From NCBI RefSeq assembly GCF_018320785.1, contig NC_054873.1, forward strand, positions 20,302,196 to 20,366,195: a stretch of 64,000 bases of DNA, in the 5' to 3' direction. A model generated the notes under the pieces. It ran no database searches, had not been told where the DNA came from, and worked only from the letters and a program-made list of their open reading frames with translations. Position 1 is the first letter of the stretch, and every line of letters begins with the position of its first letter. Of the stretch, positions 2,366 through 62,667 are shown piece after piece. Source of the DNA: Cheilinus undulatus. Its lineage: Eukaryota; Chordata; Actinopteri; Labriformes; Labridae. Position numbers and translations under genes: made by a program.

Positions 2366-2654
2366 CTCTTTCAACGCTAATCAAATCCATCAAACAAAAA
2401 TAAAAATAATTTATGTTGCAGATTTTTTATTGTTTCAAGTAAGAACTGTAGCCCAGCAACTGAAGATTTTACTTAAACTTGTTACAGTAACCAAGGGGGG
2501 AGGGGCTCCACAAAGGTTGATTTTCAGTAGCTCTTCTCTTCTGTTTATAATATTCAAATGGAATCAGTGGATTTTTTTTTTCCCTTCTTTTTTTTGCTAC
2601 CAGTGTTCATTGCACAACAACGGTTTACCTTGACCTCTGTATACCTCCCATGTA

Positions 2655-4261
<1,607 letters not shown>

Positions 4262-4469
4262 TACTTCCACGTAAGGTTGCCCACAATGGAGGATAAAGGG
4301 CAGAGATTTCTGGGGCCCATAGCTTGAATAATAACAACTCCAGTGAAAGCAACAACAAATAAATTATTTATTTATGCTGTGATACAATACAGCTTTTTTT
4401 TCAAAAGCACACCCTTTTTCTTAAAACAGAATGTTTTTTTTTTTTTTTTTTCTTTTTTGGTAAGGATAT

Positions 4470-5536
4470 GAACCGACACACTAGCTGAAACCACTTGGAA
4501 AGAAATGTCAGACTTAGCTTAGCCACAATGTGCACAAATGTCAGGATATTAGCAAATAAAGCAGAAAAACTGATAAGTTGAACGGAAAAGAATAACAAGA
4601 CTGTGAAAAGAGGCAAAAAAACATAGGTGAGAAGCAGAAAACTGGCAAAAAGTGGCATAAATGGACAAAACATGGCAAAATGGGTTAAACTGCATAAAAG
4701 AAGGTGGCAAAAAAAGAGAGAGAGAGAGACAGGTAAAGGACAGATAAAAAGTGGCCCAAACAAAATGGTAAAAACAAAAAGAAGCAGGCAAAGTGGCAAA
4801 AAGTGGGATATAAATGCCAAAAGAAGTGGAGAAATGCACAGCAAAAAACGTGAAGATAGAGCAACAAACAGCAAAAAGGGGCTGGAAGTCGTAAAAAGTG
4901 GCATAAATGTGCACAAAGTGGCAAAAAATAATGTTAAAAAGTGGCATAAACTTGCTAAAAAAGGGTTGAAAACCGCAAAAATTAACCAAAAGTAACAAAA
5001 AGTGTTGAAAAGGGCAAAGAAAGTAATAATGGGACAGATGTGACAAACAGGAGGGGCATTAATGGGTGTATTGTGGCAAAAAAAAACAAAAAAAAACAAA
5101 AAAAAAAATCATGGTAAAAACTGGTTTTAAGTGGCAACAAAACAAATACAAATGCCAAAAAGAAGTGACAAGAAGTGGCAAGCATTGGCATGAACTGACA
5201 AAAAATAGCAAAAACCAGCAAAAAACGGGTTAATGTTGTAAAACAAAAAAGTAGCAAAAACATTGCATAATGCAGCAAAAACCTGTTAAAAGTGGCGTAA
5301 AAACAAAAATGGGCGTAAAACAGTGAAATTTGTTAAAAGTGACAAAACAGTAGTACAAATGGGCAGAAAGCAGTAAAATTGGACAAATGTGCCAAAAATA
5401 AGGGGCAAAAAGGTTCAAAAGCAACAAAATGTAGCATACAGAAAGATGTTATTCAGTAGCACAAGTAAATAATTCAAACATCAGAACCCAGTAATCACAG
5501 CTGGAAAGGGCCCATTTTCTGAGTTTTTCAGGGTCC
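4470..5536 (+). repeat. solo arm of a minisatellite-bearing repeat
   Basis: From 4600 to 5440 the plus strand is a degenerate tandem array of roughly 10-13 bp units related to GTGGCAAAAA (variants GTGGCATAAAT, TGGGCAAAAA). It is flanked on the left by CCACTTGGAAAGAAATGTC (4491-4509) and on the right by ATCACAGCTGGAAAGGGCCC (about 5493-5512). Both flanks recur in the element at 42079-44336, where two such arms face each other; here only one arm is present. A poly-T run sits just left (about 4432-4452). Because the unit lacks stop codons on the minus strand, long Phe/Cys-rich open frames appear there; they are artefacts. Confidence 0.75.
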
Positions 5537-5660
5537 TTCTTGTGGGCAGCCCTTCCTTCACTAATTTGACCCCTCCTCTATCCTGATCCAACTTAACCCC
5601 CCTACAGGAACAGACAGAGCCAAAGAGAGCACACTTTACAGACAGTAAACAGGGGTCTAT

Positions 5661-11400: not shown

Positions 11401-14400
11401 CATGGTACCTACTGAAGAGCTGTTTGGGAGCCAACAGACCAGCTCATGTTACTGAGCTGAGCCAAATGAGCTCTAAAAAGAGCTGGAATTCCCAACACTA
11501 TGAGCCAGGCTGGACAGGCTTTGGCTGTGGAAAAGAAGGCAAGATCAGAGTTTACTGTACCAAACCATTCCAAACTGTGCTGAACCAAACAGGACGGCTT
11601 GGTGGAAACACACCATTAAAGATCCATTCTTTAGAACTCCTTTCCGTAGAGTAAACAAATATGGCAGACAATGAGAGTAGTAGAAGTTTTTATAATAATT
11701 TACCCTGAAATATACAAAGAAAAAGATTCTTGAGTTGATGAAAGCCAAAGGGGAGTAGAAATCAAATTGCTTTGGTTATTGTGCATCCTTCAGTCAACAC
11801 ATTCCACAATATGCTATTGTTTTGTTCATTTGACAATCCAAAATTTGCGTTCCTGGCTGCTTACAGGGTTCCTCCACACAGCAGGAAACAGGACCAAAAA
11901 TAATGAGCATATTTAATATTTGCAATTTGAAATCAGTGTGGCCAAGATGTCCCTTCAAGCTGATCAAATCCCTCCTAACACACCTCACACAACAGACAAA
12001 TCTAGCAAGGTAGTCTTTTATGTTTAGTTTTGTGGGGATGGGAGACTCTGGTACAGGTCTTCCTGATAATCCCCCATTGTTTCCAAAGCTTCAGTGGCAA
12101 TAGTTTAAGATTTAAACTTGGGTAGGATTGAATCATGAGGCTCTCAAGACCTGGTTAATCTACCAACAACTCTGCCTAGTGTTTTTTTAATTAGAGCTTG
12201 TAAGCATCTTAAAGCAAGATGTTGGTATTTTGTGCATGTGGTTTAAACAACGGACCAGTCAAGACACTTCATTCTCACAACAACTTTTGTACTTTAAATA
12301 TAAGGCTTTTGGGCCTAGTGTAAATTAATGGCATTTACTTTGAAAATCTCTGGACTCACCTGGAAGTGGTTTGGGAGGGGGGAGTTTGGGGTTACTGCTT
12401 GGTGTGTGCACGCTGCAGATCTTAATAAAGCCGGCCATGAGCATGATGAGAGCAATACCCATCAACAACACTGCCCACCAATGAGCCTGGAGGAGAGGAT
12501 GAAGCATGAATCAAAACAATCAATCGAAAAAAATAACAATTACAAATCCATAATATAATACAAGGAAGTTGATGCATACCACAATCCACTCTGCAATGTT
12601 CTCGTAGAGCTCGGGGTTAAAGATGGCCTTCTTCAGTCTGGCCAGCGGGCCGTCTGCATCCACCAGACGGCACTTCATAAACACATCACAGTAGCCCTTA
12701 AAGTCATTGCAGGGTGATCCCGCTGGCAGTGTGGTAACTTTCTTATTGAAGAAACGAGCCAGACGCTCTGATCCTGTGCTGCTGCACGTGTTGGGATTCA
12801 CTGTGGGATATAGTGATCAGACAGTTAACACAGATTTAATGACAAAGACAGAATATAAAACATCTTAAAAAGAAATGATTCATCAAGGTGTAGGAAAAAA
12901 GGTACATGACTCACTCTTCTCCATGCAGCAAACATGGCACAGCTCAGTCTCATCTTTGCCATCTTGGCTGGCACACGTACACGCCTCAAGTCCGTACTTC
13001 TCACAGATGGAGCCAGAGCAACCCTGCGGGGGAGGAACACGAGCACAGGCCAGATCAGATACTGACTGCTATGAATATGAAGTTGCTATAACAACTGGTA
13101 GCTCTAGGTGTGAAGTCTTGGGACACTTACTCCGTTGAGGCAGACTTGAGTCTCTCCATGACAAGCAGTGAAGTTGGCCTTGGGCTCAGACGCTGGGCAT
13201 TGGGCGCTCACTCCGTTACACATACCCTGGTGAGCACACTCAGAGTCCTCCCTGCACTTCTCGTTACCGCCCTTATAGGTGCACTCAGCAGTACAACAAG
13301 GACCCTGGCTGGGACTGATGAGAGAGACAAATGATCAGAAAGTACTCACAAATAATCAGGTGGAAATTAATCATAAAAACAGAAATGATCAGCTTTAAAA
13401 AAAGGTAAAATAGATACATCCATCTACCTGCAGACTTTGTTAGGTTTTAACTTGCACTTGTTGTCACCCTGGTTGGCGTCATAGCAGCACTGGTCTCTAC
13501 ACTGATCACTGTAGCCACAGTCACACTCCTCTCCTGGCTCCACCAAGCCGTTACCACAGATGGGCTGGCCAGACTCTGTTTGGGAAAAGAAAAATAAACA
13601 AGAAGACTGGCTCAGAAATCATTACAGAATGTTGCTTCATACTTTGGTTTTGTTATGACACAGTTTTCAGAGAAATTCTCTGTTTATCATACATTTTTAG
13701 TCGTTAGCACAAAAAGTCAAATCACACAATTATTGATCTGAAAGTAGAAGCAAAAACAAAGCATGGAAGCTGAGGAAAACTGTTCAACTGTTAGTGCTAA
13801 AGGCTGACTGAGCAGTGGGATTAGAGTTACCAGGCCAAAACAATTGTTTACGGTTAAGAAGTACAGTGCCGTAAAAATGTATTTGCTTCCTTTCTGATTC
13901 CTGATTTTTTCTGCATATTTATCACACTTAATTGTTTTGGATCATCAAACCAATGTTAATATATCACAAAGACAACCCAAGTAAATATAAAATGCAGCTT
14001 ATAAATGATGATTTTATCTATTAAGGGAAAAAAATCAAAACTTATCTGGCCCTATGTGAAAAAGTAATTGCCCGCCCTTGTGAAATCATGAGTTAACTGT
14101 GATTAACCACGGTTCTTGGAAAGCTGAGTTCAATTTCACTGGCCACACCCAGGCCTGATTACCACCAGATTTGTTGACTCAAGATATCACTTAAATAGAA
14201 GCTGTCAGACAAAGTGAAACAGGCTACAAGCTCTCTAAAAGAAACACATCATGACACGATCTAAAGAAATGCAAGAACAAATAAGAAACAAAGTGATTTA
14301 AATCTATCAGTCTGGAAAAGGTTACAAAGCCATTTCCAAGGCTTTGGGACTCCAATGAACCGCGGTCAGAGCCTTTATCCACAAATGTAGAAAACTGGGA

Positions 14401-17400
14401 ACAGTGGTGAACCTTCCCCAGGGGTGGTCGGCCAACCAAAATGACTCCAATAGTGCAACGACAACTCATCCAGGAGGTCACAAAAGAACCCAGAATGACA
14501 TCCAAAGAACTGCAGGCCTCACTGGCCTCAGTTAAGGTCAGAGTTCATGACTCAACCATAAAAAAGACACTGGGCAAAAACAGCATCCATGGTAGAGTTC
14601 CAAGGCCAAAGCCACTGCTGACCAAAATGAGCACAAAGGCTCGTCTCACATTTGCCAGGAAACATCTTGATGATCCCCAAGACCTTTGAAGAGATATTCT
14701 GTAGACTGACGAGACAAAGTTGAACTTTTTGGAAGGTGTGCGGCCCGTTACATCTAGCATAAAAATAACATAGTATTTGATAAAAAGAACATCATGCCAA
14801 CAGTCAAACATGGTGGTGGCAATGTGATTGTCTGGGGCTGCTTTGCTGCTTCAGGACCTGGACAACTTGCTGTGATTGATGGAACAATAAATTCTGCTGT
14901 CTACCAGAAAATCCTGAAGGCCAACATCCGGCCAGTGCCCTCAAGCTCAAGCAATCTTGGGTTATGCAGCAGGACACCGTCATGAAACATACCAGCAAGT
15001 CCACCTCTGAATGGCTCAAAAAAAAAAAAAGTAAGGTTTTGGAGTGGCCAAGTCAATGTCTGTGTACACAATGTGTACCACACAGATTAATGCAGTCAGG
15101 GGATTTCTCGACTTGAGTATTTATTTAGCACTAGCATCCAGCTAGTGACATATCCCGTTTGCTGTCCAGGCAGCTACAGGGCTGGATGGAACACACTCTG
15201 TCAAGCCAGATGGAAAAGATTTATACAGATGCTGATGTCTGAAATTACAACTTTGCAGATTTAATGGTTCCACAACCACTGAACAAATCTGCAGCAACTG
15301 TTTGATGCTATCATGTCAATGTGGACCAAACTCTCAAAACTATGCCAGAAAGAATTAAGGCAGTTCTGAAGGCAAAAGGGTTTCCAAGCTGGTACTAGCA
15401 AGGTGTACCTAATATGTCCAGGAGGCACCCCAGTCAGGTGCCCGACCACCTGAACTGGCTCCTTTTGATGCAATACAGCAATGGCTCTACTTAGAACTCC
15501 CTCAAATGTCCAAGCTCCTAAATGAAGAGCTTATCCTGATAATGGGCGGCGCTAGCATTGAAAGCTAGCGCCACCCGCCTTTGTTCCTCTTTGCAGATTA
15601 ATATCGTGCTTTGATATTTGGCCTCTTTTCACTTCGGGTGAGTAGCTATACGTGAGCTTAACCCTCGATAGCCCACATACCACTTTATCTCCATTTACTA
15701 CTTTGGAAAACTGTCATACCGCAGTCTTCCTACTATACCCTAACAGGTTAGCCATTAGCCACCGCCGTACTCCTCATTGTTTATATCCGGTGAAGGGTCA
15801 GGGAGGAAGGCTGTGGCCATTAACTGAAGCTACAGCAGTCTCTAGTGGCGGGGGGTTCATTAAAGAGCATTATAGACAGGGATTTATAACTTATACTCAG
15901 TTGTTGTTGTTTTTTGGATAATGCTGATATTTATTTTTTAGTAGTAGTTCAAATAAATTTGTTTGGAATACATTTAAGTTCAATTCATTTTTGTATTTTT
16001 TTTGCTTTTTAATAAGAGGAGCTGGGTGGTTTACTACAGCCTCATGTAACCTCACACATTATACCAACAACAATAATAGTTAAAATATATCGGAATCAGT
16101 ATTGGTATCGGCACATATTTATCGGAATTGGATCGGAACTGTAAAAAAGTGGATCGTGCATCCCTAGTTGATATCATTAGATACCAATGTATCCCTTGTT
16201 AAAATAACACTAGACTAAAGCCAGAATACTTCTCAAAGCTTAAAAACTTGATGGAGCATTTCTAGTTGGCTGGAATTAAATCATTAACTGAGGCACTAGG
16301 GTTGAAGTCTTCCACACTCATTAGTAGAGAGAGAGCAAAATAGAACTAGACTGTAGGCTGTATTATAAAGACACCTTAAGATTTTTTCACAGATTTGGCA
16401 ATACTTGTAAAACGTACCAACAAAACAGTTCCCCCTCTTCTTCTCCAACACCTGGCTGATGTTGCGCACGCTACAGATGGAGAACTTATTGTTGTTGAGC
16501 TTGTCTCCAGATGTAGCTCTTGCATACATGATGTAATTGCCCTTCTCCTTCTTGTCTTGGCTCTTGGCTTCTCCGGGGGTGCACTCAGATCCAGAGTCGT
16601 GCTGAGAGTGAGACAGAGAAAGAAAAATTTCAATTTAAAAGAAGAAGGGACAGAGTTCAAAAGGCTAATAAATTCCTCCTTGCCATGCATGAAATGTAGC
16701 ACGCCTAAGTAACTCACCGGGGATCCAAAGTTGTGTCCTACTTCATGTGCAAAAGTGATATGGGAGACTTTAGGAGGTACGTGGGAGGCATAGTTCTGTA
16801 CAGTGATTATACCAGTGTTGAGAGATTTCTTCTTTCCGTCGGAGTAGAGCTTACTTTTTTCACAGATGCCTCCGGAGCTCCCTGGGAAAGGAAAAATGCA
16901 GAAGTTGGAGCACACCGTCTTTCAAATCAAAGCTTTAAGACATGAAGGATTTCACCTCCTAAAAGAGAGGCAATTTGATGTATTCCAATACATTTTGTCA
17001 GCTAATGTGCACATGTCTGAATGCCCTACTTCAAAACATAATAAGCCTAAGTTTTCAATATTTTTCCATGTTAGATAATTCAGTTTTGTTTTTCATCACT
17101 GGCATGAGACAAACATCCTCCCACAGTGAATTAAAAGTTCTTAACAGTGCATATAATGAAAGAAGATCAATGTTGTATCGTGCTTTTAAAATGTCAGCAT
17201 CAGTTGTTGACTAAAGATGATACAATGTGTTTTTGTACCTGATGGGGCTCCAACCCAGGCAAGACCCAAGACCCCGTCATCAAAGTCTCTGTCAGTAAAA
17301 ACATAAGCTAAGCAGTAGTCGTCATGGTTCTGCTCTGAATTCAGCTCCAGGAACTTCTCTACCCCGATGTTGGCAAAGCGAAAAGGGTTGGACCTGTCCC

Positions 17401-18026: not shown

Positions 18027-19602
18027 GTGCTTAACAAATTTATTAGACCACCACTCAAAGTAAGGTGTTTGCCACAGCTGCCCTAAATTAACAGCATTGA
18101 TAATTACCAAAATCATTTTTTATGTTTCTGCAATGGTTAATACACCAATATGTAGAAGCTCTTTAACCCAAATGATATTTTTAATGCTAAAATATCATTA
18201 TTATTGTTATCCATGAATTTTCAAATTTACTGATTTACAAAAAAACTGAAAAAATAGTAAAGCACATTATTATTTCTTGATTAATATGTCAAATTATAGT
18301 TATGTATTTGCATTCTTGAACAGAAAAATTAGTTTTAGTGGTTGACTGTTCTGCTTGATTAATTTCTGACTTCTCAGAGAAGCCCAGTGAGCCAGCTCAA
18401 ACTTGGGTATAAAAAGATGAATTCAGTTTGAAATTCCTCATTCCTGTTCAAATTGATAAAACGTGGAGAGCTCACTGAAAATTAAAGAGTCCGTATTAAA
18501 GCACTTCATGATGCTGGATGGTCTCTGAGACAAATAGGGAAAGACATAAAGTGTTCTCACAGTGTGGTCAAGTATGCTTTGGAGTCAATTGCCGAGACTG
18601 GTACTTACAAAATGCACCAAGGAAGAGGCAGGAAATGAAAGCAGATGTCAGACACCTCAAGTCCTAGAGACAGAAGGAAGACCACTGCTGATCTTCAGGC
18701 AGAGATGAATGCTTCTAGATCAGCAGTCTGAGAAAGTCTCCAGAATGACCATAAGCAGACGACTGATGGAACAAGGCTTAAAGGGAGAAATAGCTGCCAT
18801 TATTGAGGCCTGCAAACATCCAGAAATGCCTCAGGTTTGCCAGGGAGCACAAACACTGGACTGTTGATGACTGGAAGAAGGTACTCTGGATGGACGAGTC
18901 CAAGTTTGAACTCTTCGGTCATAATGGTCGTGTTTATGTCCACAGAAAAGCTGGAGAACGTTTTGATGACAGATGCACTGCACCCACAGCGTGGGCAAAT
19001 GAGGGAAAATGGACGGTATCATGAACAAGAACGTCTACCACAACATCTTAGTGCATCATGGAATCCCTTCTGGACTGAATCTGATTGGTCGTGGGTTCAT
19101 ATACCAACAAGACAATAACCCCAAGCATATTTCAAAGCTGTGCAGAGACTATTTGACCAAGAAAAAGTATTCGGATTACTGGAACTGATGGACTGGCCAA
19201 TTCAAAGTCCAGATTTGAATTCTACTGAACAAATTTGGGATTTAGTAGATTCAAAGATTGATGGCACAAAAGTTTCATCTAAAGCAAGTCTGTGGGAATA
19301 GCTGGAAACTATTTGGAATTCAATAACAAAAGAGACTGTGGAAAAGTACATAAAAACAATGCCAGCAAGAATGCAAGCTGTTATCAAGGCCAAAGGAGGC
19401 CATACAAAAAATGAAGTTTTTTGGTTATTATGTGTGAAAAAGGACTATTTAGTTGTCTTCGTTTGTTATTTGCCAAATAAATAACAATAACATTTTCAGT
19501 TTTAAACAAGATTTTGAAAGATTTCTAAAATATTCATGTTTTCTCGTTTTTGTAACAGCTGGTCTAATAAATTTGTTAAGCACACATATATATATATGTG
19601 TG

Positions 19603-36688: not shown

Positions 36689-39600
36689 TTATTCCAGACG
36701 AGCTCCTCTGGCTCCAGTGGCCTCCACGTGGCACACCTCCACATCAGCTCCTAGTTTCTGCAGCTCATCCAGCCAGATCTGTTGTTTCTGGGACAATCGA
36801 TCATTGGGCCCCTTCACCTCCACCAGCTACAACAATAATAACACATTTCATCTCACACTGAACAGTGAAGAATTAATCATGTAGAAAATTTCAAATTACA
36901 AGGGCAGAATTTGACATTATTTCACCTTGTATGTGTTGTTTGAAGTGTTCCACACCACTAGATCAGGCAGACCTCCACGGCAGTGTCTGAAGTCCTTTGA
37001 CATCCTTGCTATTACCCCTCCTAAGAAAGCTCCTCCCAAGCATGAAACCAGGGACTGCAAACAGAGTGTCAAAGTGGTTTTGTCACAATTATTTCAGAAG
37101 CTTTAGTAACACATGTAAGCCCAATCTTAAATCTCAGCATACCAAAATGAAAAAAGATGTAGAAAATATTACAGAGCAGCTTTTAGATTACAAATATCAT
37201 GTACGGATATAAAGAGGTAGTGACTTAAATACATGTTTTAAGTCCCAGTTGTAGTGATTGGAGGGCTTGTTTTGGACTGCACTGTCTTGAATAATTTTAG
37301 ATTTCTTTCCCTCGTGATAAAATTAAGTCCAGTGTAAAGCATTGTGAAAAGTAGCCTCAGTTACCAATCAACATAAGACATGTTTATCCTTGTCAAGTTT
37401 AAATTTAAAGCCATGCTTTTGGACTTCCTTTACATTTTACAGACGTTCTATGCATCTGATTATGTACGTGAGAGTGACAGGAAGTACCTGTGCCTGTTGA
37501 AGGGATGAGAATCGTTCCCAGTTGACCAATGAACACACTTTACCCTCCTGAGGGGTCCAGACATTTTCCATCATGTCATGCAGAGTCTCAGAGGATGCCT
37601 CACTAATTAACTGCACACGAGAATCGATCACCTCTTTTCTGTTCTCATAGAAACAGTCGGTGTAAAAATCCAGTGGACATGTCTGAGGAGAAAGGAAGAT
37701 GATTTAAAATGATAGAAATGCACAGATAAATGGCTTAAATGAAGGTAAAGCAAAGCTTACCTGGTATGGATTTCTGAAAACATCAGGAATCCCCTCCATG
37801 AAAATGATGTCCCACAGTAGAAGAGCAAACAGTGTTGAAAAAGTTGAGCCTTCTCCATGGATTCCTGATGCATTTACAATGAGAAATCAATGTAAAGGTG
37901 ATAAAAGGAAGTGTAGATATTTTTTATAGGTGTGGGAAATCAGCTTACCTTGGTCAAAGCCTTGCTGACGATAATGTGCTAAAGACAGCTCTTCCACTGA
38001 GCATATTACAGTAGCATTAGCACCCTCATCTCCCTCTCCATTTGATGGTAAAAGAAACCTAGATTTTCCAGTGCCTCCTTCATGGGGGAACAGCTGTCCA
38101 CGGATAGTCACCTGCATGCAAAAGTAGAAACATTCAATCTTTAAAACATCATTCTACATACATGCATCAGTTTATATTTAGACATGTGCAAAACTCACAT
38201 GTCTGACATCTTGGACATGAACACTGGGCAGTTCTTTCAGTCGTAGGCGATATTTCTTGAAGCTGGCGGACTCTTTCATCCTTACAGCTCTCTGATGAAG
38301 GGAGAGTTTATGTCCAGTTCGCACTAAAGGGTCTGACAGCCCATCTCTGATAGCACTAATGGCCTAGGATCAATAGAAAAGTTGTGAAAATAAGACAGCC
38401 ATAAGTGAGCACAAAGTTGAACATATAGTTAATACCAAAGACAGCTATATTTCAAAAATAAATTCTAACAGGTTTACTTGTCAAAAATCTAGTATAAAAT
38501 ATCTCATTGCATGTACTGTAAACTACAGTATACCTGTGCAGAAAAGCATCTTATTTAAAGATACAAAAGCAAAAAGAAAAGGTCTGAATTTCTAGGGAAA
38601 AGCTAAAATGTCTGCTAATGCAGCAGAAATAATTTACTTGAGTATCTGAAGTCCTTGAAAAATCTCATTTAAAAGCAATAAGTAAAACTCCATGCTGCGC
38701 CAGGAGGCACTTTATCTGATGAGCAATTCAGACTTTATTTTTGCTAGTTATATCCTGAAATAAGATGTTTATCTGGATTTTTCAAGTGAAAATGGCTAAT
38801 AGTAAGTGTAATGAGATTTTTTACAAGTTATTTGACAAATACACCACTAGGATTTCAGTTTAAGCGTCCTCACTTGCTCAGGTTTTTTCAGGTGCTGGTG
38901 AAGGTTTAGTGCCAGTCTGTCCCACCATCGTCCTCGACTATCAGGACAGTAGATCGACTGCAACAGCAGGGATTGAAGTTCCTCTATTGCTTCCTGGATA
39001 AAAAAGTAGACCAATAACACAATTGATCTTTGTTTATAACACACAATTGGAATTTAAATATGCAACATTTTTAGTAACAGTGAGCAAATTAGATAGATAA
39101 AAACAAAATCAAACAAACAAACAAACCTCATAGCGTCGTAGCCTCTGCAAGATCTCCACCCCTCTGGATAAGATGCGAGTGTAGGCCCAACCTGTGGTGA
39201 AACTGCGCAGGAACACAGGCAGCTGCTCCTGGTGACTATTCAATACAATAATATTATTATAAAGGGCTTAAAATGCAACATGAGTATTAAAAACCAAATG
39301 TCACATAATCCAGGTGTAAATATATTCTGGATGAAATGACTTCACAAAAAGCACTCTGTTTACAGCTTTCAGAATGAGGGTTTGTCTTGATATACGGCTT
39401 ATTCATATGTAGTTCAGAGGCTCAGACATACTTCATTAATGCAATCCTCAATTCCAAAAAAACTGCCAACTTATGCTAAAAGATACAGGGGTTTGCTAAT
39501 CATTTAAAACCTATATTCAACTAAATAAAGCACCAAGACAAGATGTTTAATGTTCAAACTAATACTAGTGCATCTTAAAAAAATTAGAATATCATGAGAA

Positions 39601-42600
39601 AGTTCAATATTTTTTGTCACTTGTTTCTGAAAGTGAAAACCATATGTAGACTTGTTACACATAAAGTGAAGTATTTCAAGCCTTTATTTCTTGCTGAAGT
39701 ATTTAAAGTCAAATTTTTCTTCCCATTATTCCTTGATGTACATCTTTGTTGCTCAGCAGTGCAGGGGTGCCATTGTCATATTTTGGACTTCTCACCATAC
39801 ATTTTCTAATGGGAGACAGGTCTGACCAATCTAGCACTTGCATGCTTTTACTGTGACACCATGCTATTGTAACTCATGAGGAAGGTGGCTTGGCATTGTC
39901 TTGCTTGAAGAAGCAGGGATGTCCCCGAAAAAGACGTCATCTGGATTGAAGCATACAATGCTCCAAAACCATTTATATACCTCTTAGTATTAATAGTAAA
40001 TCCACAGTTACCCATGCCATGGGCACCAATACACTCCAACACTAGCACAGATGCTGGCTATTGAACTTTCCTCTGATAATTTTAAGTATGGTACTTTTCC
40101 TTCAGAGCTTGGAGGGCTTGATGGCCATTATTTCCAAAAACAATTTAAAGAGGGGAGTCATCACAGCATTCTTTTCCACTTTAGGTCAGCCCATCCCAGA
40201 TGAGCTTGGGCCCGGAGAGGTCTGCAGCACTTCTGGACGTTGTTGATATATATGCTTTCATTTTGCATGGTAGAGTCTTAACTTGTATTTGTAGGTGTAG
40301 TGACATACTGTTTTAACTGACAAGGGTTTTACTAAGTGTTTCTGGGCCCAAATTGTGATATCCATCACACAATTATGGCAGTTTTTAATACAGAGCTGCC
40401 TGAGGGAATCAGAGGTTTCAGACATTCAGTGTTGGTTTTCAGCCTTGCCCCTACATGCAGAGATTGTTCTTACTGAATACCTTATAGACATTAAGACCTT
40501 TTAGACTTAACTTGACAAAGGAAATTAGAAAAGAAAAAATGGTGAGTAATTTAGAAAAAACAAAGAGAATCTATGTTGTGGTAATAAGACAAGTTTACAA
40601 AAAGTCTGGTCTGAGAGTACAGACACATGTGATCCATTTTTGCCAATTATCGATAAATTAATCTTTTTGTGCTCAAGGTTAAAAGTTATTCTTTCCATCA
40701 CAAATATGCTATGCACCAGTTCAATAAATTCATCTACATTGGGTATCTCCTTTTTCAGCAATTTCCTGGTTTAGCACTTTTTACATGACCAGTTAACTTA
40801 CTTAACTGTGGAATGTTGTGCTTGTGAGGCATTCCCCACTTGTCCCTATCCCAACACGTCGCAGGCATCAAATTCGGAATTTATGTCTACTAGTATTTTT
40901 TAAAGTTTGTCAGTTTGAACAATGAATGTCTTGTCTTTGTGCTATCTGTAACTGAATATATGTTAAAAGGTTTACAAATCACTGTATTGTTTATAGCATT
41001 CCACACATCCCAACTTTTTTGGAATTTTGTTTGTGGAGGTTTATCACCACTTGTCTACTGCTCTCAGTCTCAAAGACACTTGCAGTGTCTGAAAGTTGCC
41101 TAGTGTTACTTTGAATTATATCCAAGAAGCATGTATCTCTGTTAGACACAAGAAGCAAATTAATAGATCTGTCACCTGAGGTCATGGTTCTGCCTCAGCT
41201 CCAGCCAGATATTTTTGGCAGCAGAATAAAGCTCCATGGCCTCTTCCCACTGACCTCCCTGCATAGCTGAGACGATCTCTAGCAGGGCTCGCATGGAGGC
41301 TTCATATCTAGTGTAATAGATGGAAAAATTAGTATGCATTCCTGGTAAAACAAACGTAAATCAACTCTTCCGTTTGACCCTCACCTGATAAGATCGTCCC
41401 TGTCCAGGAACACCTTTGCCTCACGCTGTACTTTGTAATCTGGGAAAGCTAGGCGTCCTGTGTTAACCAGTAGGATGGTGAAAAGCTGGTTCTGACCACC
41501 AGCTGCCATCTCCTCCTCATCCATAGTGTCTGTTAAGGAGAAAAGAAGGAGGATGCGAGAAAAGACGGCCCTGGGACCACGACACAGACGCACGCAGGAA
41601 CCAGCAAGCTGCCTTGCCCTTTCAGGGTAGAGAGAAGAAGAATGAGATCACTAAAGCAGAGATATTAATGCGAAAGAAAGAAAAAATATGTTATTTCATA
41701 TGTTTCACCTTTTCAGGATGACAGCCCCAATATTGTTCTGTGCATTAGTCACAAAGAACAGGGACTTTTGTTTGCTCAGACGGAGAAGTCCATCCACTAG
41801 CTGCTGTTTTTGAGTCCCAGAGTTACCCAGGTGGAAAGTTTTGGCCAGAGATTTGAGTTCAGGTGCTGGAAGGAGATCCAGAGCTTCCCCTAAGTCCTGA
41901 AGGTCACTCTCTTTGATTGACAAAACAAAAGAGAAGAATATACAACAAAAATCACATTTTGAGGTTTGTTGACTAAACCTTAAATGTACTTTACAAACAT
42001 GATGTATTGTATCACACTTTATAAAAACTTGATTTTGTCGTGTACAGTCGTGTAAGTAGGCCTGTCCACAGAATTGGCTGGGCCCCTGAAAAACCCAGTG
42101 AATAGGCCATCCCCAGTTGTGATTTATTAATGATATCAATGCATGGAAGGAAAAGACGCACTGGTGCTAGTGCCCACCAAACAGTTACTTCATTTTGGAG
42201 CTGAAAAGGGTGTCAAGCTGTAATTTGATTCTGGTGTCATAAGAATTTATTTTGTGCCGCTTTTCAACCAATTTTCACTACTTTTCTGCCCAATTATGCA
42301 ACATTTTTTCCACCTTTACCTCATTTTCAACACTTTTTGCCCCTTTTTGATCCCTTTTAACCACTCTATCTGGCTATTTTTGCAAAAGTTTTGCCACTCT
42401 TTTTCCATTTCTGACACTTCTTGACCCTTTAACCCATTTTTGCCACTACTTCTCACTACTTTCTCAAACTCCTTTTGCAACATGTTTGCCACTTTTAATA
42501 CATTTTGACCTCATTTGCCTCTGTCAACCCATTTTCCCCACTCTGTAATTCTTTTTCACAACTTTCACTGCAATTTTTTTTCTAACCCATTTAGGACATG

Positions 42601-45600
42601 TTTAACCCACTTTTTGGAATTATTTAATCATTTTCCCTTAAAGTTGTCTCACTTCCCCCGTGTTACTTTCTGGCATCTTTTTGTTTGTGCACATCATGGC
42701 TTAGCTTTGAAGTCTGACATTACTTTCCAAGTGGTTTAGTCAATGTACCCATCCACACTGTGTCAAGCATTAAAGAAAAAGATGTAATCAGTCTTTATGC
42801 TGATCATCACATTTTCTTGTGCAGGTCACATAATGGTATCACTTTTGTTTTTTATTTGTTTCCTAACCAGCTAAAAGCTTCATGCAGGATTTTTGATAAA
42901 ACAAGTAAGCAAAAATGGATGAATTTGGCAAAATTACTGTTACCATGTAAGCAGCAGCGAAAGGTTAAAAGGTGGATATAAGCAAAGACATTCAAAACTG
43001 GTCATGGAGGAAGAAAATATGCTAACAACATAATTGTTTTAGGGACTTTTCTTACTTGCAAACCCAACTAATCACTCATTTACTGGTAAAGACTGAAAAG
43101 ATTTTGTATTGCCTATCCTAGCATGCACTGGTAGGGATTAATAAGATGTCAGATCGGTTTCCTATCTTGTCCTCACTTTCACTACTGCCTACATCCCCTT
43201 TGGTAAACAGCAGTACTATCTAAAGAAAAACAGTGCAATAGAGTAGTTCAAATAATTGATGTCTCCTGGTTATACCTTGAAAACATAACCTAAACAAAAC
43301 TCAACAGCATAGTAAAGAAGCGAAGTTAAAAATATATATATATAGATACTTTTGGACATCATCAAATTCTAAGAATTCTGAGTCAACAGTACTGAAAAAT
43401 ACTAAACTAATAATAATAGTTTAAAAAAGCAACAGATCTTCATCAAAGCCAAAAGCTGCTGTAAGCAAAAGAGAGAGCTATTGCCATTGTATAGTTAATG
43501 TGATAATTTTTTTATTTAACTATTTTAACTGAATAATAACCAATTATTGAAGAAACCCGTCTTAATTTATCTATTTATATTTATTTTTATGTATTTATTT
43601 CTGACACAGTATATAGGCTTCTTTAAAATGTTAGCCCTTTTTCTTATAACTACATTTTAATGGGTTAAAAGTGGCAAAAATTGTGTTGATGGGAAAACAT
43701 GGGTGAAAAACAGGCAGAAACATTGTAAAAAGGGGTTAAAAAGGCAAAAATGGTTTAGAGTGACAAAAATGTGCACACCAAATAGTGAAATGTGGGAAAA
43801 TGGGCAAAAAAAAAGAGTGAAAAGGGGTTAACAGTAGTAAAACTGGGTTAACTGGGTTTCTGAAAGGCAGAAAAATTGGTTCAAAGTGGTAAAAACGTGT
43901 AGATATAGTGTCAGAAAGAGTTTAAAAAGTGGCAAAAATAGGCCTAAAAGATAGTGAAATGGGATCTTAAAAGTTGCAAAATCTATTGAAGGTGGCAAAA
44001 CTGTTTATGTGGTAAAAATGGGCAAAAAAGCAATGAAAATATGTTAAAAATGTGGGGAAAAAATGGGTAAAAAGTGTGAAAATTTGATTTGAAAAGTTGC
44101 AAATGCAGTGGCAAACATGGGCACAAAACATAGGTAAAAGGAAAGTGGCACAAAAAAAAAAAAAAAACAATTTTAACATCAGGACCCTATAATAGCTTGA
44201 CACACTTTTCTGCTCCAAAATGAGGTAACTGTTAGCCAGGATGCTAGCACCAATGCCACTGATCCAACACACAAACACTGATACCATCAGTAAATCACAA
44301 CTGGGGAGGGCCCATTCTCTGGGTTTGCTGGGGCCTAGTCCTGTCTAGATGTAGTATTTTTGTTGCCTCGGTGTAACAATATTGCTTGACTTTTGCTAGA
44401 ATTATTAAGTTTATATAGTTTAAAAATCTGGATTTATAAAAATCCAAGATATGACTTTAAGAAATGGACTCTCCAAAAGATCTTCCAAAATGTAAAATCA
44501 ATCACCAGGATTCATTTACCTGACTGTAGAAAACCAGCTTGAACAAGCTCCTGTGCAACAGGCCCCAGATCACTGCTTATCTCTTCATAATCCAGTTTAT
44601 TCACCTGAAGCCACTTCAGTTTCCTCTGGAAGAGTCTCACGTACAGTTTCTGGCCCATGACTTTAAGAAGACAAACACATTAGTGACAAAATCTAACTTA
44701 CATCTAACAACAGCTGGTTGATATTACTTGTGCATACCTGATAGCTTCTCAAAAGCATTCACTACTGACATGTCATGATCATCGAACAGTGCTCTATCAT
44801 CCTCATTCTCCAGGACAGCCTCGAGCACAGTGCGGAAGTTACGCAGGTAGTAGGGAAGCCATGTGGGGTGAGAGGTCTCAACAGCCTGGTCACTTTTAGT
44901 GTTCACAGCACCAGAATCTGTGAGCGAATCACTATTGATCACTGCAGCACTTTCCTGGGATGTTTCCTCTGAAGTCAGGGGAGGATCACATGTGGCGGTG
45001 GTAAGAGGTAGGTGTGCTTCTGTCGTCTCTTCTTTTTTTCCAGACACATTATTATCCTGCTCTCTGTTTTTGTAATCATATTTTGCTTTCTTTCTAAAGA
45101 CAGATTTGTGGCCAGTGAAGGGTTTTCTCTTTGCAAGTTTAGAGGGAGAGGAGTGCAGCTTTGGGGTAATCCGTTTTTGGACTGATTTAGATTCATTTGC
45201 TTTGAGTCCTTCCTCTGAACACGATAGACTTTCCACTGCTTTTGGAGTCTTTGGGCTGCTTTCTGTCAGGTCAATGACCGTCACACAATCTTTTCTGTAT
45301 TCTAAACTCTGAATCAAATTCTCTTTCTGTGAGTTGCTGAGTGTCTCAGAAGAGCATATCTCCTTTTCAGTAAATGTTTGTGAATTTGAATCCTCTTTCA
45401 CTGTGCTCTCAGGTGCCTTTTGACATTTCTTAGATAACTTGGAGGCAAGACTTCCCAGGTCAAGCGTCCTGACCACACGATTACTGCTCAGCTCCTGTGG
45501 TATGTGCTGGCAGTTATTCTTTTTAAAATAAGGGCTGGTACTGGTCTCTTTCACCTCTTCTTCCTTGCTTAGATTCAGCTCTGGGGATTTTGGAGGATTC

Positions 45601-48329: not shown

Positions 48330-48610
48330 TGGTGGTCATTATCTTAAAAGACTTTTGACACTGTTAGTCACAATGTTCCTCTTTGAAAATTTAATTTCTT
48401 TTGTAATGCACTTACATGGATGAAGGCATACTTGCACTCATAAAATATGTGCACTAAGATAAATTATGCATGCTTTTCTTTTACTGATTGTACTTTTGGT
48501 GTTCCTCAGAGATCAGTCTTTGAACCAATATTATTTAGCTAGTCTATTAATGACGTACCCCTGATTTGCTAAGAGGCCCATATCCAGATGAAAGCAAAGT
48601 TCAGTTGCCA
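48330..48610 (+). mobile_element. LINE reverse transcriptase remnant, copy 1
   Basis: Plus-strand reading gives KTFDTVSHNV..L near 48348-48380, ALTWMKAYL near 48405-48430, and CTFGVPQ(R)S near 48488-48515 with an IND(V)P tail near 48548; these are the ordered conserved blocks of a non-LTR reverse transcriptase (FDxxxHxxL, then GxPQGS, then YINDL). Frame breaks and stops throughout. Family probably L2/CR1/Rex-like, from memory. Confidence 0.6.
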
Positions 48611-48860: not shown

Positions 48861-49139
48861 TTGGTTTCCATTATCAGGAATTGCAGGCAAATCTCTGCCA
48901 AACGACTAAATTACACAAAAAACCAAGGCAATATCCATTGTCTTTGTGTAATTAAAACAGTGTACAAAAGCCCTGCAATATTTGTTGATTGTACTTTTGG
49001 TGTTCCACAGGGATCAATCCTTGAACCATTATCATTTATTTTGTATATTAATGATGTACCCCAGATTTGCGCAGAGGCCCATATCCATTTTTATTCCTTA
49101 CCTTGTATTATGAAACCCAGTCATGTGCATAAGTTTTAG
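48861..49139 (+). mobile_element. LINE reverse transcriptase remnant, copy 2
   Basis: An open segment reads DCTFGVPQGSILEPLSFILY then INDVPQICAEAHIHFY (near 48986-49105), the GxPQGS and YINDL blocks of a non-LTR reverse transcriptase, stopping just short of the FADD catalytic box. Nearly the same 120 bp occurs about 500 bp upstream in copy 1. Confidence 0.7.
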
Positions 49140-53200: not shown

Positions 53201-56200
53201 GACAACCCTAATTTTAAAAGCATCACTCACTGAGAGCGGATGAAAAAAAGTGTTGGTTTTCATAAGCTCATAGTCAATCACACCTACTCTGCAGAAGAGA
53301 TTCCAGACACCAAAAAATACAAAATAAAAATGATTTGTCTATATTCTCCTTGTCACTTTTGCTTTTTTAGGTCATAAAGCAAAGGTGACAGTCATTTTAG
53401 TTATTTCATAACAAGAAACTAACTCCTCCAGGTAACTGCAAGCATTAAAGCAGATGTTTTTCTACCACAGATTGAGAAGCCAGTGACTGCTGCTGCTGTT
53501 ATACCTGAGGAGGTGCAGGAGCCGCCACAGAGGCCTCAGTGTCCTGAGCTCGCCCCTGCAGAGGAGAGCAACACAGCCCAGGTGAAAGCTCATTCATCAT
53601 CCATCATCAAACATGATGCGTTCAGACTTTGTCCTACTTTGGCACTTTTTGCTGCTTCTCTTCATCTTTAAGCTGGAGTTTTTTTTATAATTTACCACAA
53701 ATTAAGAGAACCTTTTTAAGACTGTGCATGGGCTAAATGACTACATGTCAAACAAAGTAGGACAACTACAACGGTCTTTTCCTTTTAAGTCTTTGATAAG
53801 AGGATATGCTTTTAAAAGTCCTTCTTGTATATGATTTTATTCATTTTCTTATCGTTGATTCTATTCAGGCATTATTTCAGACTATTAATCTTGGATATTT
53901 TAGTAAACAACTGAATTATGTAGCTCCTCTGTCACTCTTTTATTCAGACACACTACTGCAAAACTCAAATTTAAGCACGTTTTTGTGTTTCTTCTAGAAT
54001 AAAAAATCATATTGCGCTTATTTCAAGACTTACAATCTATCAGAGGAGGTTTTTTTTTTAAGTTATTATAAGCAGTGCAGGATATATTTTTGGGTTTTTG
54101 CATCTGAAAATAAAAAAATTGTCTGGACTTGTCAGGTCAGCGTATCTTTTAACGTGCAATGTTATCTTTTTGAAATTAGATGATTTGCTGTGCTTTCACC
54201 AATATCATTACTTAGATTTGAGTTTTTGCGGTGTGTTTAATGTAGTCCCTCTTTTTTGGTGTCTTTATATTTTATCCCTTCACTGTTGTGAAATTTGTTG
54301 TTGAGCATTTATGTTTTGCAGAGCCCCTTGTCACGCTGGTATAACCACTATAGTTATTATTATTATTGTAAAATATAATCTTTGACAGCTTGCTTTGAAT
54401 GTTTCTTTGAGTGCTATGACCACAAAATGTTTCTTTTTCAAGCTTTAAGCCAAACTAACCAACATGTTCACTTATTTCTAACAAGACACAGGAAGCTGCT
54501 GCTTTCCCCAGCTTTGAGGATGGTAATTACTCTTAAGTAATATTCTAATACTTCATTGTTTGTTTGATTTGTTTGAGCACATTATAACTCTTTCATCATT
54601 GTTAAGTCCCAGGTCCCTGTGAGCCAGAGGATCTTATCGATGGGATCATCTTTGCTGCAAACTACCTTGGCTGCACTCAGGTGTTGTCAGATAAAAACCC
54701 GTCCAAGTCTGTCCGTATGTCGCAGGCCCATGAAGCTGTCAGTCGTATCAAGGTAATCAGCATGACACATTAAAATCAAGCCAGAAACGTTACTGTTCAC
54801 TTTGTTCTGGTTAAAAATGTAGGGACAGCTTTCAGAAAATTTGGCACAAGGTTGGCCCTGTGCTTGGGAGAAACTGAGCAGAATTTTGTAGTGATTAGGA
54901 TCAGGGATTTATGCAAAAAGACGGTTTCCTTTGAGCTTCAGCTTTCAAATTAACTGAGATACAGAGTTGATTCTTTATCCAAAGGGTGCTATAGCAGCTT
55001 CAAGGATGAAATCAATGTCAGTGTGTTTAATAGAAAGGTGCTTTATCCATAAATATCTGTTTCCCCTCTCTCAGCTATGATGCAAAATCACTTCTGACCA
55101 CATGGTGGAGCTGTTGTATGGCACAACTAACTAGCCCATGTTTGTGTTCTGATTATGAGCTGAGACAGGATTTTCCTCCAGGATACAGGTCTCATTTTTC
55201 ACAACTATTTATAAGGCATTCATTGAAATACCTGGAAATTCAAAATTCAAACCCTAGAATATTATTGGTCAACATCCCAAAATTTTTTTTACTTTTTCAC
55301 TTATATATTTATTTTATTATTATAAAGTGTATGCATCTTAAAATGTTAATTATAGAAAAATAAATACACACCACGCCAAATGAGTTTTAACTTACACGTT
55401 AGAAGATTATTTAAATGCTAAATATTTATTCACATAATATTTGAAAGAGGATTCAAAATGCTGCTTTTTGATGAAACTTAGGACATGTAAGACTAAGAGT
55501 TACCTGGGGTTCAGAGATATCAGGGTTCATGAGGTTGCCTTTAGATTCTGACCTCTTTTGGAGGCAAGACATGACCGGCTTCAGGATACTGTTTAAGTCA
55601 TGGTGGCACCAATAGTTTTATCTTATAATTCCAATAGGAGAACTATAAAAATATAACATATATTGAATTGCTAAGTAAATCTTAGCAATGATTAGGCTCA
55701 CAATGAAAAATAAAACAGATTTATGACATTTAAGTAGAATATAACTGTTTGACTTTAGTAAAACTGACTAAAATCACAAATATTTCACTATTATACCAGT
55801 CTATTTTTCTTATAATTCCAACAGAAAACCTAAGAAAAAAACAAATATTTAATGTCTAAATTGATTTAAGCAGAAATAAGGCCCACAGAAAGAATGATAT
55901 AAACTACAAAACAGCTTTAAGGTTATAAAACGGACCAAACATCACACCTATTTTACTATTTTCATCTTGAAAATTTCTATGAATTGGCAAGATTTACCAA
56001 CTTTGTGTTGTTTTTTACAATCCTGTGGCAACATCTTACTGCACTACAGAGCACTGTTATCATACATTTAATAAGTTATTTTCCAAGAAAATACCCTAAG
56101 TATGGTTTGATAGATGAATTGGCCAAATGTTTTATAGGCACCATTTTACACCCCTAAATGGAGGTAAGATCAAATGTGGTTCCTCTAAAATTTCAGCAAT

Positions 56201-60469: not shown

Positions 60470-62667
60470 TCATAAATCGTCCTAAAATACAAAGACGAAA
60501 TAATGAGTCACAGAGCAGCAGAGATGGGAATGACCCTACGTAATATGAATAGAAACACAGTAAATGCAGCTAACCAATCACTAAGCCCTGCCCTTCAATG
60601 CCATGAACCAATCACATTTCTTGCAGCTCCAAAATGCAATAGAGCTCCACAGCAAAATATTAGAAAATGCTGTTTTATTTACATTTATTAAATTATTACT
60701 TAGAAAAATGGTCAAATGATGTGCATGGGGTAAATACAACATTAATGTGAGGTAGCTGTTAAAGCTGTTTTGTAGTTTATATCATTCTTTCTGTGGGCCT
60801 TATTTCTGCTTAAATCAATTTAGACATTAAATATATGTTTGTTTCTTAGGTTTTCTGTTGGAATTATAAGAAAAATAGACTGGTATAATAGTGAAATATT
60901 TGTGATTTTAGTCAGTTTTACTAAAGTTAAGTCATTTGGTAAGATATATGCTGAAATGAAAGCGATGTTTAAAAAAGTCCTCGAAATATAAATCTGCACA
61001 TGGCTATTCTTGTTTGCACGCAGCTGTGTTCAACTATGCTTCAACGCCCTTCAGGTGTGGGGGTCCCTGGTCTCTTCACTCCTATTGAAGAGACCGGGGC
61101 TGGCTGAAAAGTTTGGGATGTAGCAGACCACAGTCAGTTCAGTATAAAGATCAACAAAGATATATACATTTGTTCTAGTTTTGGTGTTTTCCAAGGTAGT
61201 GTTCGCTAAGTTTGCTTCAAAATGTGCAAAGTTAATGTAGTTATTCACTGCATTTTGGTGTCAATTTCACCTTTTAACATGCTCTATCTGTTAGCTTTTC
61301 TTATTGCTGCCTGAGATTATCCTGTCTTCTTTTTCATTTGCCTGTTAACTTTGGCCAATTCAGCTCTTATTACCTTAATCAGGCCATAAGCACAACCATG
61401 AGGAATCATTCAGTGGTAATGAAACAAGTCAAAGGGGGTCAGAGAATCAGTTTACAATACTGGATTTTTTTTCAGATATATTATTGATATGTTGTATTGA
61501 TTCCTATTGTGCATCCTCTGTTAATAATGCATTTGCCCCATGTTTTAAATGTCATAGAGTAGAATGCACTGTATATTGTCTTCTGAGGCAATTCTTTGCA
61601 ACAAAGTCAAATTTCCAACAAAGTCATTAGAAAAGAAAAATGAAAATGCACTACTGCAGGTTGTGAGTGAATAAGGAATAATAATGCTTAAGTGCCAACC
61701 CACTAACTTACATTTGCTTTTAATGTCAGTGGTGAACTTGTCACTCTGTCAAGAAAAACAGCATTCAGGTATCCCTCCCCATAAGAATCGTCTTCATCTT
61801 CATAAATGTCGACACCAGCACTGAAAGCCTCCCTCATCCTCTCCGGCATCATAAAGTTGAGAATAAGCACTAGAATCCCAATGATGGTGCACAGCACACC
61901 TGCAAATCATTTCCCATCAGTAAAAATTGAATCTTTCAGAAAGTTTTGTTTAATCAAAAATACATGAAATCAAAGTGCAGCTTGCGTTTTTTTTACCTGT
62001 AGCTAGAGCCAGCCAGAATGAGTGGCTGTACTCAGTTTCAAAGGAGTCTGTACCTATGGAGAAAACACACTCTGGCACGTTCCTGATGGTGGAGAAAGAA
62101 GCCATGGAGAAGAAGATGAAGGCAGCAGTTGCCACCATCATGTATCCGGCGTACAGAATAACCGGCATGGAGAAGAGGATGTTGGCGAGCATCCAGGTGC
62201 AAAATGCGGTCCTGTAGAAGCATGCAACCATTTTATTTTTCCCTTTAACTATTATCTAACATGACTGCACTGTATTATGTTACAGTGATTATACTGTAAT
62301 GTCCTTGGCCCCATTTGTTACATGTTGGTAAAAAAATAAAAATAAAAATAAGTAAGAGTATTAAAAGGACATAAATAAGAAATAAAAAGTTTCATTACAA
62401 AAAACCCAACTTATTCTGTTAAATAAACATGAATATAAGTTGCAAGACTATTTTGTTACCAAAGAGTTGCGGAGGCGTATCTTCCTGAGTATCTGTACTG
62501 AAAGATGAGTCGACATGGGCTGCCCATGGTGAATTTCTCAGCGATGTACAGGATAGGGCTGGGCAGACCTTTCTCCAGAGCTTCCTCATACTCGTCTTCA
62601 ATTGTATCATGCCAGCTGAACATCTCGTTGTAGTCGATAGTTTCATTCAACTGTACAATGGGATTCC
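60470..62667 (-). CDS. duoxa: dual oxidase maturation factor, partial
   Basis: ER membrane protein needed to mature and traffic dual oxidases (DUOX), which make hydrogen peroxide for thyroid hormone synthesis and epithelial defence. Exons seen: 62667-62460 (starts in phase 1, conserved [15 protein letters not shown] with a glycosylation site, then [17 protein letters not shown]), 62211-61997 (membrane helices [20 protein letters not shown] and onward, then WLALATG), 61899-61712 ([18 protein letters not shown], then an acidic cytosolic tail [10 protein letters not shown]), and probably 60481-60470, which adds only Asp-Asp-Leu and a stop. Without the last splice, reading ends in VS-stop at 61703. 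The N-terminal exons, with the first helices, must lie past position 64000; no exon was found in 62668-64000. DUOXA1 and DUOXA2 cannot be separated from this part. Confidence 0.88.
60757..60932 (-). repeat. inverted-repeat copy B (duoxa intron)
   Basis: Reverse complement of 55748-55922, in the duoxa intron before the proposed last exon. Confidence 0.8.

What the first reader, a model, noticed from the sequence alone, without database searches (positions are those of the whole stretch)
42079..44336. Intronic element built from two inverted minisatellite arms
The sequence shows matching inverted terminal domains (about 165 bp), each followed inward by several hundred bases of A-rich (or T-rich) minisatellite of GTGGCAAAAA-like units, around a non-coding core of about 0.9 kb. 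Terminal repeats that contain a long minisatellite are unusual for DNA transposons. It would transcribe as a large fold-back RNA inside fan1 pre-mRNA, which could influence splicing or be an RNA-editing substrate; that part is inference.
Basis: partly seen in the sequence, partly recalled or inferred. Interest (0 to 1): 0.7.

Follow-up and report, generated by a model that had tools for sequence, protein, structure and literature searches.

The report
Fold-back transposon inside fan1 intron
An old, non-coding jumping gene sits in an intron of a DNA-repair gene, probably in a fish; its two long mirror-image arms are built of short A-rich repeats spaced about one DNA helix turn apart, an arrangement of a kind known from insects, nematodes, sea urchins and plants.

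Summary
Two inverted terminal domains (42078-42242 and 44171-44338; 169 columns, 75% identical, z 41.7 against shuffles) enclose inverted A/T-rich arrays (42255-42640, 43655-44165; z 11.6) around a non-coding core of about 1 kb. The element fills most of a 2.6-kb fan1 intron. A diverged second copy lies at about 4270-5545 in the same window: it shares the terminal domain, the array type and a 120-bp inner piece, but has one array only (891 bp). So it is a repeated family, not a chance palindrome.

By anatomy it is a non-autonomous foldback-type DNA transposon, like Tetris, Galileo and Tm1; tandem repeats inside terminal repeats are the hallmark of that kind, not an oddity. New here: the arrays are less a sequence repeat than A-tracts with a period of 10.3-10.5 bp, one helical turn; the 25 best of 894 A-rich stretches scored all lie in or overlap the two elements. 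Exact ends, target duplication and superfamily are unresolved. The genome search did not complete (12 attempts) and no repeat library was at hand. The transcript would fold back strongly; effects on splicing or editing are untested.

The parts
42062..42254 (+). Left terminal domain (best inverted match 42078-42242; outer part 42050-42077 shared with the second copy)
42255..42640 (-). Left array, 386 bp, A-tracts on the - strand, period about 10.5 bp
42663..42780 (+). Inner core piece shared with the second copy (69% over 120 columns; 42684-42737 at 87%)
42641..43654 (.). Core, about 1.0 kb, no recognised coding sequence
43655..44165 (+). Right array, 511 bp, A-tracts on the + strand, period about 10.4 bp
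44166..44345 (-). Right terminal domain (inverted match 44171-44338); outer end not well defined
4443..4559 (-). Second copy: inner core piece
4560..5450 (+). Second copy: array, 891 bp, A-tracts on the + strand, period about 10.3 bp
5451..5545 (-). Second copy: terminal domain
4272..4442 (.). Second copy: stretch to its presumed other end, without an array; tentative
   Evidence: (not significant)
41911..44519 (-). fan1 intron that holds the element (2609 bp; 325 bp without 42062-44345)

Best explanation
It is an old, non-autonomous, foldback-type DNA transposon that inserted into a short fan1 intron. Shown: two inverted terminal domains, each followed inward by an array of A-tracts spaced about one helical turn apart, a middle without a recognised gene, and a second copy of the family with a different array length and arrangement. 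Inferred: the ends were recognised and cut by a transposase supplied by an autonomous relative; the arrays served as many secondary binding sites and/or as bent DNA that helped to bring the two ends together, as proposed for tandem repeats in the ends of other such elements; they grew and shrank by slippage or unequal exchange, so that arm lengths differ. In fan1 it is now most likely a passenger whose transcript can fold into a long imperfect hairpin.
For: Inverted terminal domains and inverted arrays far above shuffles. Second copy in the same window with the terminal domain, the array type and a 120-bp inner piece in the same order as the left half (profile and core hits; the profile was built from the three domains it finds). 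Array lengths 386, 511 and 891 bp. A-tract period 10.5, 10.4 and 10.3 bp in the three arrays (2, 0 and 6 of 500 shuffles reach the power). Intron of 2609 bp falls to 325 bp without the element. Same anatomy as Tetris: flanking domain, repeat block of variable number, variable middle, no transposase.
Against: No target-site duplication is established: the best candidate for element 1 is 10 bp with one mismatch, equalled or exceeded in 17 of 400 random pairs of places, and it falls inside sequence that the second copy shares; for the second copy the best is 5 bp exact or 7 bp with one mismatch. The outermost 40 bases of the right end resemble neither the left end (2985 of 3000 shuffles reach the score) nor the second copy (2751 of 3000). 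Only one two-armed copy is known; the second copy's presumed other end is not significantly similar to its first end in the wider test (score 26, shuffle maximum 31). Within-element arms (41 of 53 columns identical) are hardly closer than arms of different copies (38 and 36 of 53). nhmmer links the arrays of the two copies only weakly (E 0.021 to 0.45). No transposase was found and no genome-wide copies could be counted.
Confidence: 0.72

Rival explanations
1. Two one-armed elements (terminal domain, array, inner piece, like the second copy) inserted head to head in the same intron, and the pair only looks like one element.
For: The second copy has a single array. No target duplication brackets the pair convincingly. 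The two outer ends of element 1 are not alike.
Against: The inner piece that follows the array in the second copy and in the left half is not found inward of the right array: left and right core halves show no inverted similarity (score 26, shuffle mean 27.2), and the best match of the right core edge to the second copy lies elsewhere and within shuffle range (47, shuffle maximum 48). Two insertions with opposite orientation in one short intron are less economical.
Confidence: 0.14
2. A host feature of fan1: an inverted repeat kept because its RNA hairpin controls fan1 splicing or editing.
For: The element folds far more stably than 12 shuffles, with 140 pairs between the terminal domains and 246 between the arrays.
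Against: A copy of the same sequence family lies about 37 kb away, outside fan1. The arms are 25% diverged and no compensatory pairing was tested. The next fan1 exons read in frame without it.
Confidence: 0.05
3. A family already named in Repbase or Dfam (hAT-, Harbinger- or Mutator-like non-autonomous element), with the array an unremarked detail. This concerns naming and is compatible with the best explanation.
For: Two copies in 64 kb suggest a common family. The outer motif begins near (T)AGGSCTGYCCACA, which from recall resembles ends of hAT or Harbinger elements.
Against: Not checked: no repeat library and no fish genome could be searched. No listed title or abstract in the paper searches fits.
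Confidence: 0.55

Closest known systems
Tetris, foldback transposon of Drosophila virilis (PMC4079207; abstract, sections 10 and 16 part 1 seen)
   Same: Inverted ends made of an outer flanking domain, a block of tandem repeats of variable number and an inner domain; variable non-coding middle; no transposase; deletion derivatives.
   Different: Tetris units are about 220 bp, flanking domain up to 866 bp, target duplications of 8-10 bp known; here units are about 10 bp, flanking domain about 170-190 bp, and no target duplication is established. No sequence comparison was made.
Galileo (P superfamily), Drosophila mojavensis F subfamily (PMC3573991; abstract and passages seen)
   Same: Long ends with internal tandem repeats whose number differs between the two ends of one copy; repeats proposed as secondary transposase-binding sites.
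   Different: Units of about 210 bp; a known P-type transposase; hundreds of copies studied there, two here.
Tm1, Mutator/foldback family of root-knot nematodes (PMC3169594; passages seen)
   Same: Ends built mostly of short tandem units (13-15 bp), variable in number between the ends of one element; asymmetric outermost motifs outside the inverted repeat.
   Different: 9-bp target duplications and a Phantom-like transposase known; unit sequence different; not A-tract spaced as far as the passages say.
FB (foldback) elements of Drosophila melanogaster
   Same: From recall (Potter 1982, seen only as a reference entry): ends of 10-, 20- and 31-bp repeats, the same ladder as the autocorrelation here (10-11, 20-21, 31-32).
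   Different: FB unit sequence and mobilising element are different; no comparison of sequence was made.
PATCs, periodic An/Tn clusters of C. elegans (PMC7725773; abstract and passages seen)
   Same: Periodic A-tracts in intronic DNA (the 10-bp period of PATCs is recalled, not seen in the passages).
   Different: PATCs are nematode DNA with tested anti-silencing activity; here the A-tracts are part of a mobile element and untested; no PATC score was computed.

Membership tests
Foldback-type transposons (structural class) | Long inverted terminal repeats | tested here: met
   169 columns at 75% in the terminal domains plus inverted arrays
Foldback-type transposons (structural class) | Tandem repeats inside the terminal repeats | tested here: met
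   Degenerate units of about 10 bp with significant period in both arms; below the Tandem Repeats Finder threshold
Foldback-type transposons (structural class) | Repeat number varies between arms and copies | tested here: met
   386, 511 and 891 bp; the second copy has no array at its presumed other end
Foldback-type transposons (structural class) | Dispersed copies of the whole two-armed form | tested here: inconclusive
   One two-armed and one one-armed copy in the window; genome search unanswered 12 times
Foldback-type transposons (structural class) | Target-site duplication (8-10 bp in those cited) | tested here: inconclusive
   10 bp with one mismatch in element 1, reached in 17 of 400 random pairs; none of that length in the second copy
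Mutator, P, hAT or Harbinger superfamily | Transposase of the superfamily, own or of an autonomous relative | not tested
   None seen in the core: no Pfam match for the single 87-aa frame searched; autonomous relatives could not be sought
hAT or Harbinger superfamily | Characteristic terminal nucleotides with 8-bp or 3-bp target duplication | tested here: inconclusive
   Outer motif shared by two ends (2 of 3000 shuffles) but not by the right end of element 1; no duplication established
PATC-like DNA | A-tracts with a period near 10 bp over hundreds of bases | tested here: met
   10.3-10.5 bp in three arrays; PATC algorithm not run
PATC-like DNA | Protection from germline silencing | not testable with these tools
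   Needs a transgene assay

The most novel reading that the evidence does not exclude
A vertebrate foldback-type family whose arms are kept for helical-turn A-tract structure (bent or nucleosome-disfavouring DNA) rather than for sequence, serving transposase synapsis or escape from silencing in the manner of nematode PATCs, and thereby seeding such DNA and long hairpins in host introns.
Probability: 0.12. Interest if true: 0.75.

Novelty: new member of a known kind. Interest (0 to 1): 0.42.

Why it matters
Foldback-type arms have been described from flies, midges, nematodes, sea urchin and plants (papers seen). A probable fish family with short-unit, helically periodic arms would extend the kind to vertebrates and give many natural replicates for asking whether such arrays are kept for transposase binding, for DNA shape, or not at all. 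It would also be a source of long intronic hairpins in genes. If the family is already catalogued, what remains is the A-tract periodicity as a description of its arms.

Tried and rejected
Rfam at gathering scores: 0 in the window. tRNA-like core: none in 41000-45000. Array unit by motif search: only a 10-bp A-rich motif of 4.4 bits, with no hit above threshold in the three terminal domains, so no sign that the array grew out of the terminal domain as suggested for Tetris. Selection for long-range phase: not supported; permuting the order of units reaches the observed power in 1029, 178 and 467 of 2000 cases. Flanks outside the ends: of 10 comparisons the lowest counts are 20 of 500 (second copy's left flank beyond the Tc1-like element against its inner stretch) and 52 of 500 (left flank of element 1 against the second copy); neither was followed up. 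Paper searches: ten; no listed title or abstract describes a foldback-type element in fish; one search listed 15 of 131. One listed paper with both words, PMC6431247, was checked by passages and has none. The library lacks most subscription journals.

Full report
Observation. The region 42062-44345 reads: terminal domain, T-rich array, core, A-rich array, inverted terminal domain. The terminal domains align over 169 columns at 75% identity (score 161; maximum of 300 shuffle pairs 34). The arrays align in inverted orientation (143; maximum 77) and not in the same orientation (17; shuffle mean 19.8). The inverted arms are therefore real and more than an effect of composition. The left end probably reaches 16-28 bases further out, since the second copy shares that stretch (2 of 3000 shuffles and 3 of 2000 random window 40-mers reach the score; alignment). 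The right end does not share it.

A second copy. blastn of the region against the window finds related pieces at 4488-5536. A profile of the terminal domain, built from the three domains including this one, finds these three and nothing more below E 3.5; the core alone finds 4451-4567 at E 1.7e-07. Read on the - strand this copy has the terminal domain, an array of 891 bp, and a 120-column match to the core (69%, z 14.3; within it 54 bases at 87%). About 170 bp later, beside a Tc1-like element, lies a presumed second end that shares GGYTGCCCACAA with the first (135 of 3000 shuffles and 37 of 2000 random 40-mers reach the score). In a wider alignment it is not significant (26; shuffle maximum 31), and it has no array. 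So the left half of element 1 recurs; the two-armed form was seen once. In 53 shared columns the two arms of element 1 agree at 41, and the arms of different copies at 38 and 36: all three are old.

What the arrays are. Tandem Repeats Finder lists no array in element 1 and two short pieces in the second copy. Autocorrelation peaks at 20, 11, 21 and 10 bp (left), 32, 10 and 11 (right), 10, 20 and 21 (second copy). The spectrum of AAA positions peaks at 10.5, 10.4 and 10.3 bp; 2, 0 and 6 of 500 shuffles reach the power, against 243 and 340 of 500 for the two strands of the core. Of 894 stretches of 386 bp with at least 20 AAA, on both strands of the window, the best 25 all lie in or overlap the two elements; the best of the 800 outside scores 12.3 against 25.3. 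The arms are thus A-tract arrays at helical-turn spacing. A control speaks against selection for long-range phase: reordering the units keeps the power (1029, 178 and 467 of 2000 reach it), so local spacing of about 10.4 bp explains the signal. By nhmmer the arrays of the two copies are only weakly alike in sequence (E 0.021 to 0.45), though above shuffles by plain alignment (z 7.6 and 8.8): the spacing is better kept than the letters.

Setting. The gene is fan1 on the - strand. The frame 44727-45923 matches FAN1 of PDB entry 9gy0 (E 3.2e-25, residues 20-416); its exon should end at 44738. A frame at 41708-42166 matches residues 462-530 (E 4e-16) and holds the Fan1_SAP domain (E 1.9e-23). Residues in between are most likely encoded by 44520-44660, read from splice signals and an open frame; that piece was not searched by itself. 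This gives an intron of 41911-44519, 2609 bp, or 325 bp without 42062-44345. That the host is a fish is inferred from recall (Tc1-like elements, compact introns); no call names it. The fan1-sense strand of the element folds at -678.0 kcal/mol against -533.8 (sd 5.9) for 12 shuffles, with 140 pairs between terminal domains, 246 between arrays, and a longest near-continuous run of 71 pairs. Nothing here shows that this matters to fan1.

What it is. Foldback-type transposons have composite inverted ends with tandem repeats and arose in several superfamilies (PMC3169594, passages; PMC4079207, discussion). Tetris matches feature by feature. For Galileo the authors write that tandem repeats in such ends have been proposed as secondary transposase-binding sites and could be positively selected (PMC3573991, passages). 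I adopt that mechanism as inference. The target duplication is unresolved: the best candidate (10 bp, one mismatch) is equalled or exceeded in 17 of 400 random pairs and lies inside sequence shared with the second copy. The superfamily is therefore open.

Verdict. No listed title or abstract in ten paper searches describes a foldback-type element in fish, but no repeat library was available, and I think prior cataloguing about as likely as not.

Noticed in passing
2652-4264; 14378-15060; 18794-19021: Tc1-like elements: the first has 231-bp ends in inverted orientation at 91% and a DDE_3 match (E 3e-14) and lies beside the second copy; the second is 65.6% like it; the third looks Tc1-like from its translated frame (by eye).
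   Followed up: partly
39508-39560 and 40912-40964: Another inverted pair (53 nt, 79%) with 1351 nt between the arms, just downstream of the SAP exon of fan1.
   Followed up: no
55749-55920 and 60759-60930: Inverted pair of 172 bp at 98.3% identity, 4.8 kb apart: a young repeat, unidentified.
   Followed up: no
48485-48586 and 48986-49087: Direct repeat of 102 bp at 86%, about 500 bp apart.
   Followed up: no
8564-8615 (frame 8475-8717 -): GC-rich tandem repeat of 9/18 bp giving a His/Gly-rich frame; possibly coding.
   Followed up: no
4488-4538 and 42684-42737: The best conserved stretch between the two copies (87%) lies just inside the array, not at the ends; it may be a functional site of the parent element.
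   Followed up: partly
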